A DNA stretch of 64,000 nt from Chloroherpetonaceae bacterium (lineage in GTDB: Bacteria > Bacteroidota > Chlorobiia > Chlorobiales > Chloroherpetonaceae), in NCBI GenBank assembly GCA_028277445.1, contig JANQGG010000060.1, positions 1-64,000 on the forward strand. The letters are read 5' to 3'. Position 1 is the first letter of the stretch, and each line of letters starts with the position of its first letter. A model generated the notes under the pieces. That model saw only the letters and a list, made by a program, of their open reading frames with translations, was not told the origin of the DNA and searched no databases. The position numbers were made by a program, and so were the translations under genes. This document shows, one piece after another, positions 46,581-47,849 of the stretch.

Positions 46581-46591
46581 TTTCTCAACTA

Positions 46592-46628
46592 CAAAGAAAG
46601 AATCAAAAATTGGTTCTTTCTTTGTTTT
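46592..46628 (+). terminator. Terminator after lpxC-fabZ
   Basis: An 11-bp perfect stem CAAAGAAAGAA/TTCTTTCTTTG is followed by TTTTAA, 11 bases after the stop. It ends only 15 bases before the next ATG, which therefore needs its own promoter within or after the hairpin, or read-through. Confidence 0.85.
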
Positions 46629-46643
46629 AACTAAGGGAAAAAT

Positions 46644-47531
46644 TTGAAACAAGTATGTGCATTTCTTGATTTATTAGGTTATTCAAACTATATGAATTCG
46701 AATTTCAGTGATGCCTTTGAATTAATTGAAAACTATACACATATACTTCATACTGGAATTAAATTAGATGGTCAATATAACTCTTTTAAATATGTAATTC
46801 CTTTTAGTGACTCGATTTTCATTATTAGCGAAAAAACTGATGACTTTATTGAAGACATTTCAAGATTTTTATTAGATAATTTTTATTTGACTTCAAATGA
46901 GTATACACATCCTATCGATCCATCTGAACCCACAAAAGTTATTATCAAAAAAGCTAGAATTTCAAGGGATGGCAAATTCACTGTCAATGATATTGAGGCA
47001 CGTTGGTATCCTGGTATATTTAGAGGAGGCATTACATTTGATGAAGTAAAAACTTTTGTACAAATAGGAGTTAATAATTATTCACTTTACGATCAAATTA
47101 ACCTGGCAGGAAGAGGTGTTGTTAAAGCTGTCTCACTTGAAAAACAAGGAAGAGGCCCTCGTATATTCTGTGATCATGAATTTATAAAACTCCTTTCTTC
47201 TGAAAAACGAAAAAAGTTTATTCATGGAAATAACAATATAACAGAAATTCTTTGGCCAGTTGCTGCATATATAGATTCAAATACTGATTATCATATCGAA
47301 TTGGTTAATGGATTCAGTAAGTTGTTTTATCCAGTGCTTTCTCTATGGAAAGCATATGAGTCAACACCTGCGGGTATTGTATATTTTAATTTTTTAAACC
47401 TTATAGTGTTTTCAACTATTAAGTACTTCACAGATAGAAATTATAGAGAAGATGCAATTAGATTTATAAAAGAAAAATTAGAAGAAGAAGGTATTGGATA
47501 TTACTTCGAATCATTTACATATTTATTATAA
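46644..47531 (+). CDS. Uncharacterised 295-aa protein with possible class III nucleotide-cyclase-like fold, AT-rich
   Basis: I cannot assign the protein firmly. Its N-terminal half follows the order of motifs in class III nucleotidyl-cyclase domains: Asp9 in FLDLLGYSNYM (like F-x-D-hydrophobic-x-G-F-S), Asp56 in VIPFSDSIFIIS (the second metal Asp), RGGITFDEV near residue 127 (like R-x-G-I-x-x-G), and INLAGRGVVKAVSLEKQG near 153-170 (like G-x-x-V-N-x-A-x-x-L-E). This is inference from pattern; substrate-specifying residues are not clear. Base composition is clearly more AT-rich than in the genes on both sides, and it lies next to a decayed DUF2283 gene, consistent with horizontal gain. No membrane span or signal peptide is present. 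Confidence 0.55.
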   Translation: MKQVCAFLDLLGYSNYMNSNFSDAFELIENYTHILHTGIKLDGQYNSFKYVIPFSDSIFIISEKTDDFIEDISRFLLDNFYLTSNEYTHPIDPSEPTKVIIKKARISRDGKFTVNDIEARWYPGIFRGGITFDEVKTFVQIGVNNYSLYDQINLAGRGVVKAVSLEKQGRGPRIFCDHEFIKLLSSEKRKKFIHGNNNITEILWPVAAYIDSNTDYHIELVNGFSKLFYPVLSLWKAYESTPAGIVYFNFLNLIVFSTIKYFTDRNYREDAIRFIKEKLEEEGIGYYFESFTYLL

Positions 47532-47589: not shown

Positions 47590-47789
47590 ATGAAAGTGTA
47601 ATATGACGAAATAGCAGATGCCTTATACTTGAAGTTTGATGAGGACGAACCTAGTAAACGTTATAGAAATTGTGCGGATGAAACTTTATCGAGCGGAAAA
47701 ACCTGTTACGGAACGAACCTAGTAACGTTATAGAAATTGTGCCGAAGGTATCAACATCGGTACAAGCCATGATGGAAAGCTTATCGTAA
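47590..47789 (+). pseudogene. Decayed DUF2283-family gene with internal direct repeat
   Basis: The frame reads MKV-stop-YDEIADALYLKFDEDEPS, which is the start of a DUF2283 protein (MKVEYDEIADALY...) with Glu4 changed to TAA. After further frame disruption it recovers as NVIEIVPKVSTSVQAMMESL-stop. A ~30-base segment (CGAACCTAGTA-ACGTTATAG plus AAATTGTGC) occurs twice, at 47646-47675 and 47714-47742, so an internal duplication contributed to the decay. DUF2283 genes are often found beside toxin-like DUF4258 genes, but no partner is left here. Confidence 0.7.
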
Positions 47790-47849
47790 TGTTAGGTTAA
47801 TATGAAACTCCTTGCCCATTTTTTAATTATCATATTAAACCTATTTTCA

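What the first reader, a model, noticed from the sequence alone, without database searches (positions are those of the whole stretch)
46644..47531. AT-rich orphan with nucleotide-cyclase-like motif order
The order D-x-LGYS, FSDSI, RGGI, and G-x-x-V-x-x-A-x-x-LE is that of class III nucleotidyl cyclases, including those in phage-defence signalling. The gene differs in base composition from both neighbours, sits 15 bases after another gene's terminator, and borders a decayed small gene, all features of accessory DNA. No effector gene is adjacent, so it is either a lone signalling enzyme or a related non-catalytic fold.
Basis: inference. Interest (0 to 1): 0.6.

Follow-up and report, generated by a model that had tools for sequence, protein, structure and literature searches.

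The report
Stand-alone cyclase-like protein on mobile DNA
A foreign-looking bacterial gene encodes a protein with the fold and metal-binding residues of enzymes that make cyclic nucleotide signals, but without two of their usual catalytic residues; it belongs to a widespread, unnamed family carried by plasmids and prophages whose product nobody appears to have measured.

Summary
The ORF at 46644-47531 is real (295 aa, TTG start) and a strong composition outlier (GC3 0.18, z -3.9 among 40 window genes). It has no significant Pfam, NCBIfam or PADLOC match. Full-length homologues occur in Fibrella (one on a plasmid) and Dyadobacter; through them it joins a broad unnamed family on plasmids, in prophages and in about 7% of sampled Bacteroidota genomes. 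An AlphaFold model built on 26 relatives (pLDDT 78) matches class III nucleotidyl cyclases in all 50 listed PDB hits (best E 3e-5). Profile-profile comparison with class III cyclases of the same genome scores twice the best of 100 shuffles; GGDEF does not. Both metal aspartates (D9, D56) are invariant in 58 of 58 divergent members; the canonical transition-state Asn-Arg pair is complete in none (Val and Ser here). No effector gene is linked to the window gene or consistently to its relatives; one prophage clade pairs it with a ParA-like ATPase. The cyclase-fold reading is confirmed; cyclase activity, product and any phage-defence role are untested. It is not shown to be Pycsar.

The parts
46644..47531 (+). 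gene for the class III cyclase-fold protein, 295 aa, TTG start
46668..46670 (+). codon of D9, first metal-ligand aspartate (end of strand 1)
46809..46811 (+). codon of D56, second metal-ligand aspartate (FSDSI, turn between strands 2 and 3)
46935..47003 (+). beta-hairpin insertion (residues 98-120) specific to the window subfamily (window, Fibrella, Dyadobacter)
47022..47033 (+). RGGI motif (127-130), aligned with the (R)IGI strand of class III cyclases
47109..47141 (+). catalytic-helix motif GRGVVKAVSLE (156-166); V160 and S164 stand where class III cyclases have the transition-state Asn and Arg
47289..47519 (+). helical C-terminal part (residues 216-292), function unknown
46591..46625 (+). 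hairpin followed by T-run, probable terminator of lpxC-fabZ
47603..47803 (+). decayed small ORF with duplicated segment, DUF2283-like by eye

Best explanation
The gene encodes a probably cytosolic and homodimeric enzyme with the class III nucleotidyl cyclase fold, from an unnamed family that travels on plasmids, prophages and genomic islands. Shown here by computation: the fold; two metal-ligand aspartates at the cyclase positions; absence of the canonical Asn-Arg catalytic pair; foreign composition; stand-alone organisation at this locus. Inferred: D9 and D56 bind Mg or Mn and an NTP at a dimer interface as in class III cyclases, and the enzyme makes a nucleotide signal (a 3',5'-cNMP or another NTP-derived product), stabilising the transition state differently. 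Its target would be encoded elsewhere. As accessory DNA its likely role is stress or anti-phage signalling; that is the weakest step.
For: Foldseek: all 50 best PDB hits are class III cyclases, probability 1.00, best E 3.3e-5, PycC structures among them, from a model with pLDDT 78 and pTM 0.75. Profile-profile comparison with class III cyclases of this genome: scores 38-41 over 136-144 columns against a maximum of 20 in 100 column shuffles; GGDEF at noise. The broad-family HMM built without the window protein finds it at 2e-6 and true class III cyclases at 2-4e-7. D9 and D56 invariant in 58 distinct members. Composition z -3.9; patchy distribution; plasmid and prophage carriage.
Against: The canonical Asn and Arg are missing (V160, S164) and never occur together in the family; the Lys before the second Asp is not conserved either. 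No conserved effector in 53 loci. No PADLOC match for the window protein. Foldseek TM-scores are moderate (0.4-0.67). No biochemical data exist for any member as far as I could find.
Confidence: 0.55

Rival explanations
1. The fold keeps metal and NTP binding but does not cyclise: it acts as a nucleotide sensor or sponge, an NTP hydrolase, or a regulatory partner protein (in one clade, of a ParA-like ATPase).
For: Asn-Arg pair absent while the metal ligands are invariant; in four viral contigs the gene follows a ParA-like ATPase gene by 2-11 bases; mostly stand-alone without a receptor.
Against: Loss of the Asn alone is compatible with activity in class III cyclases (Rv1900c, as discussed in PMC4886424). 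Binding-only roles do not usually demand perfect retention of both metal ligands (inference).
Confidence: 0.3
2. It is a member of a Pycsar anti-phage system: a pyrimidine cyclase with a cyclic-nucleotide receptor and effector.
For: Same fold; PycC structures 8jsz and 7r65 among the fold hits; the Fibrella homologue gives a weak PADLOC PycC hit, E 0.0068.
Against: No PADLOC match for the window protein or for any of ten broad-family members; no receptor or effector gene beside the gene or beside its close homologues. The class III-wide features explain the weak hit.
Confidence: 0.05
3. The gene is a decaying passenger of past horizontal transfer without present function.
For: Single copy, absent from the other 60 relatives searched; beside a decayed small ORF; unusual composition.
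Against: The ORF is intact over 295 codons and keeps the family-invariant residues and the subfamily hairpin and C-terminal part.
Confidence: 0.1

Closest known systems
Class III adenylate/guanylate cyclase catalytic domain (Pfam PF00211, Guanylate_cyc)
   Same: Fold and order of elements, two metal aspartates, (R)GGI strand, G-x-x-V-x-x-A-x-x-LE helix
   Different: No Pfam hit even at E 10; SD in place of GD; transition-state Asn and Arg and the Lys before the second Asp not conserved; hairpin insertion and helical C-terminal part
Pycsar pyrimidine cyclase PycC (AnPycC 8jsz, BcPycC 7r65)
   Same: Fold and two catalytic Asp about 44-47 residues apart (D62/D106 in AnPycC, PMC11224242; D9/D56 here); stand-alone cyclase domain on accessory DNA
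   Different: No PADLOC PycC match for the window protein, no receptor or effector gene next to it
DUF2652 cyclase-like family (PMC4886424, Biol Direct 2016)
   Same: An uncharacterised bacterial single-domain family related to class III cyclases, with the metal aspartates kept and the Asn replaced
   Different: Different family: DUF2652 was not among the Pfam matches of the window protein or of relatives; there the Arg is often kept, here not
GGDEF diguanylate cyclases and mCpol/Cas10 palm enzymes
   Same: Distantly related palm folds with two-metal chemistry (established knowledge); an mCpol structure (9pd0) appears only weakly, for the poor first model
   Different: No profile similarity to GGDEF above noise; no GGDEF or GGDD motif

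Membership tests
Class III nucleotidyl cyclase superfamily | Class III catalytic-domain fold | tested here: met
Class III nucleotidyl cyclase superfamily | Two metal-ligand aspartates | tested here: met
   D9 and D56, invariant in 58 of 58 members
Class III nucleotidyl cyclase superfamily | Transition-state Asn-Arg pair in the catalytic helix | tested here: not met
   V160 and S164; pair complete in 0 of 58. Some active class III cyclases lack the Asn (PMC4886424)
Class III nucleotidyl cyclase superfamily | Formation of 3',5'-cNMP from an NTP | not testable with these tools
   needs an enzyme assay
Pycsar | PycC-type cyclase by profile | tested here: not met
   no PADLOC match for the window protein; Fibrella homologue only E 0.0068
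Pycsar | Linked cyclic-nucleotide receptor/effector gene | tested here: not met
   neighbours are lpxC-fabZ and an ICMT-like methyltransferase gene
DUF2652 | Pfam profile match | tested here: not met
   not among matches up to E 10
GGDEF diguanylate cyclase | Profile similarity and GG[DE]EF motif | tested here: not met

The most novel reading that the evidence does not exclude
The family is an undescribed class of nucleotide second-messenger enzymes borne by mobile elements, with two-metal class III architecture but a different catalytic apparatus and possibly a new product, used in conflicts between phages, plasmids and hosts.
Probability: 0.2. Interest if true: 0.8.

Novelty: new variant of a known kind. 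Interest (0 to 1): 0.5.

Why it matters
A broad family with invariant metal ligands and no Pfam, NCBIfam or PADLOC match is invisible to standard annotation: its plasmid copies are nearly all labelled 'hypothetical protein'. If active, it adds a nucleotide-signalling enzyme type to mobile elements and makes a direct test possible: purification and an NTP assay with Asp-to-Ala controls would show whether class III chemistry runs without the Asn-Arg pair. Pycsar shows that accessory cyclases of this fold can be immune signalling enzymes.

Tried and rejected
Single-sequence searches of Pfam, NCBIfam, PADLOC and PDB gave nothing significant. Scans of genome and viral collections with the single window protein found no relatives; alignments were needed. 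The first AlphaFold job with 3 sequences was poor (pLDDT 49.5) and its fold hits only suggestive. Direct profile comparison of the 3-sequence subfamily with class III cyclases was not significant; the link runs through the broader family. Synteny: the one same-family genome searched lacks the gene and has different DNA downstream of lpxC-fabZ, so no empty site could be defined. A SIR2-like partner in L090 is suggested by motifs only, without Pfam or PADLOC support. E. coli prophages carry a distant ParA-like gene but no cyclase-like gene beside it in the two loci read. DUF2283 identity of the decayed neighbour could not be confirmed. GGDEF relationship rejected. The neighbour survey used a crude ORF caller and had no background control, so no claim of defence enrichment is made.

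Full report
Observation. The ORF exists exactly as described. The TTG start is right in substance: homologues align from residue 4 on, including the strand that carries D9, and the next ATG (46692) would remove it. The gene is by far the most AT-rich at third positions in the window (GC3 0.18 against a mean of 0.42, z -3.9, 40 genes). It lies between the hairpin that follows lpxC-fabZ and a decayed small ORF, then a convergent ICMT-like methyltransferase gene.

Distribution. It is single copy in its genome and absent from the other 60 relatives searched, including the one same-family genome, whose single contig of 3,293,456 bases fits Chloroherpeton thalassium from memory (a lead, not a test). 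Only one other of 395 phylum genomes gave a BLAST-level match. Full-length homologues (about 32-34% identity) are on a Fibrella plasmid, in Fibrella rubiginis and in Dyadobacter sp. SG02. They lie in unrelated contexts: behind a GT61 glycosyltransferase gene beside RND efflux genes in Fibrella; convergent with a NucC-related DUF6602 nuclease gene near conjugation-like genes in Dyadobacter. Patchiness plus composition fits horizontal transfer.

The wider family. A profile of the three homologues led to distant relatives, and one of these to a broad family on plasmids of Acinetobacter, Agrobacterium, Rhizobium, Sinorhizobium, Sporosarcina, Terribacillus and others (40 records), in 21 of 296 Bacteroidota genomes (the weakest of these matches are ordinary class III cyclases), and in at least 22 distinct viral or prophage sequences. 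The window's subfamily and this broad family are homologous: profile-profile E 2e-10 over 139 columns with D9, D56, RGGI and LE in register; the broad HMM, built without the window protein, finds it at 2e-6. None of the ten A6 members has a meaningful Pfam or PADLOC match.

Fold. With 26 relatives the AlphaFold model has pLDDT 78 and pTM 0.75. The order of strands and helices is that of class III cyclases, with a beta-hairpin insertion at 98-120 and a helical C-terminal part. Every one of the 50 best PDB matches is a class III cyclase (probability 1.00, best E 3.3e-5). Without any structure prediction, profile-profile comparison with class III cyclases of the same genome gives scores of 38-41 over 136-144 columns, against a maximum of 20 in 100 column shuffles; GGDEF domains score at noise. 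The A6 HMM also retrieves true class III cyclases (L079, L082). I regard the fold as established at about 95%.

Active site. D9 ends strand 1 and D56 sits in the turn between strands 2 and 3; both align with the metal aspartates of ordinary cyclases and of PycC. Both are invariant in 58 distinct members (36 in one alignment plus 22 further in the other). R127, G128 and E166 are nearly invariant in the 26-member set. The canonical helix Asn and Arg are V160 and S164 in the window protein; across the family Asn is kept in 4 and Arg in 4 of 58, never together (read). The Lys four residues before the second Asp, present in cyclases of this genome (DKFIGD, DKYIGD), is not conserved either. Loss of the Asn alone is compatible with activity (Rv1900c and DUF2652 discussion, PMC4886424). 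So metal-dependent NTP chemistry is likely, cNMP formation is possible, and the product is unknown.

Context and function. No effector is adjacent here. In 53 loci examined the neighbours are varied; ordinary metabolic genes are common, and defence-related genes occur (methyltransferases, EcoRII-type nuclease, DUF6615, AAA ATPases), but no enrichment test was made. One clade differs: in four viral contigs (L111, L113, L130, L136) the gene directly follows a ParA-like ATPase gene (gaps of up to about 11 bases), and those ATPases are 42-68% identical to each other. In L140 the gene sits between fragments that read, by eye, as type I restriction specificity and methylase subunits. Anti-phage signalling is plausible but not demonstrated.

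Verdict. This is a member of an uncharacterised, mobile, class III cyclase-fold family: a new variant of a known kind. Shown: gene, composition, fold, metal dyad, missing Asn-Arg pair, stand-alone organisation. Inferred: NTP use, dimerisation, signalling. Speculative: defence.

Noticed in passing
L111:3927-5642, L113:3931-5687, L130:3910-5645, L136:496-2297: In four viral or prophage contigs a ParA-like ATPase gene (AAA_31) lies directly upstream of a cyclase-like family member, an apparent conserved two-gene module of unknown function.
   Followed up: partly
L140:505-2555: A cyclase-like family member sits between what read as type I restriction specificity and methylase genes, with gaps of a few bases.
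   Followed up: no
L090:4078-5870: A family member follows by 11 bases a gene whose motifs look SIR2-like by eye; Pfam and PADLOC give no support.
   Followed up: partly
L040:532-2895 (minus strand): A locus with two adjacent PycC-like cyclase genes, the second with Thr in place of the catalytic Asn, next to a small protein with hydrophobic stretches; possibly a two-cyclase Pycsar variant.
   Followed up: no
window 47645-47745: Duplicated segments (13 bp and 22 bp, spacing 67-68) inside the decayed small ORF; its first part reads like a DUF2283 protein by eye.
   Followed up: partly
L004:9003-9791 (minus strand): The Dyadobacter homologue converges on a DUF6602 gene that matches NucC nuclease models (PADLOC E 3e-21).
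   Followed up: no
L079, L082: Ordinary class III adenylate cyclases that score with the broad-family HMM, useful as intermediates between the orphan family and classical cyclases.
   Followed up: yes
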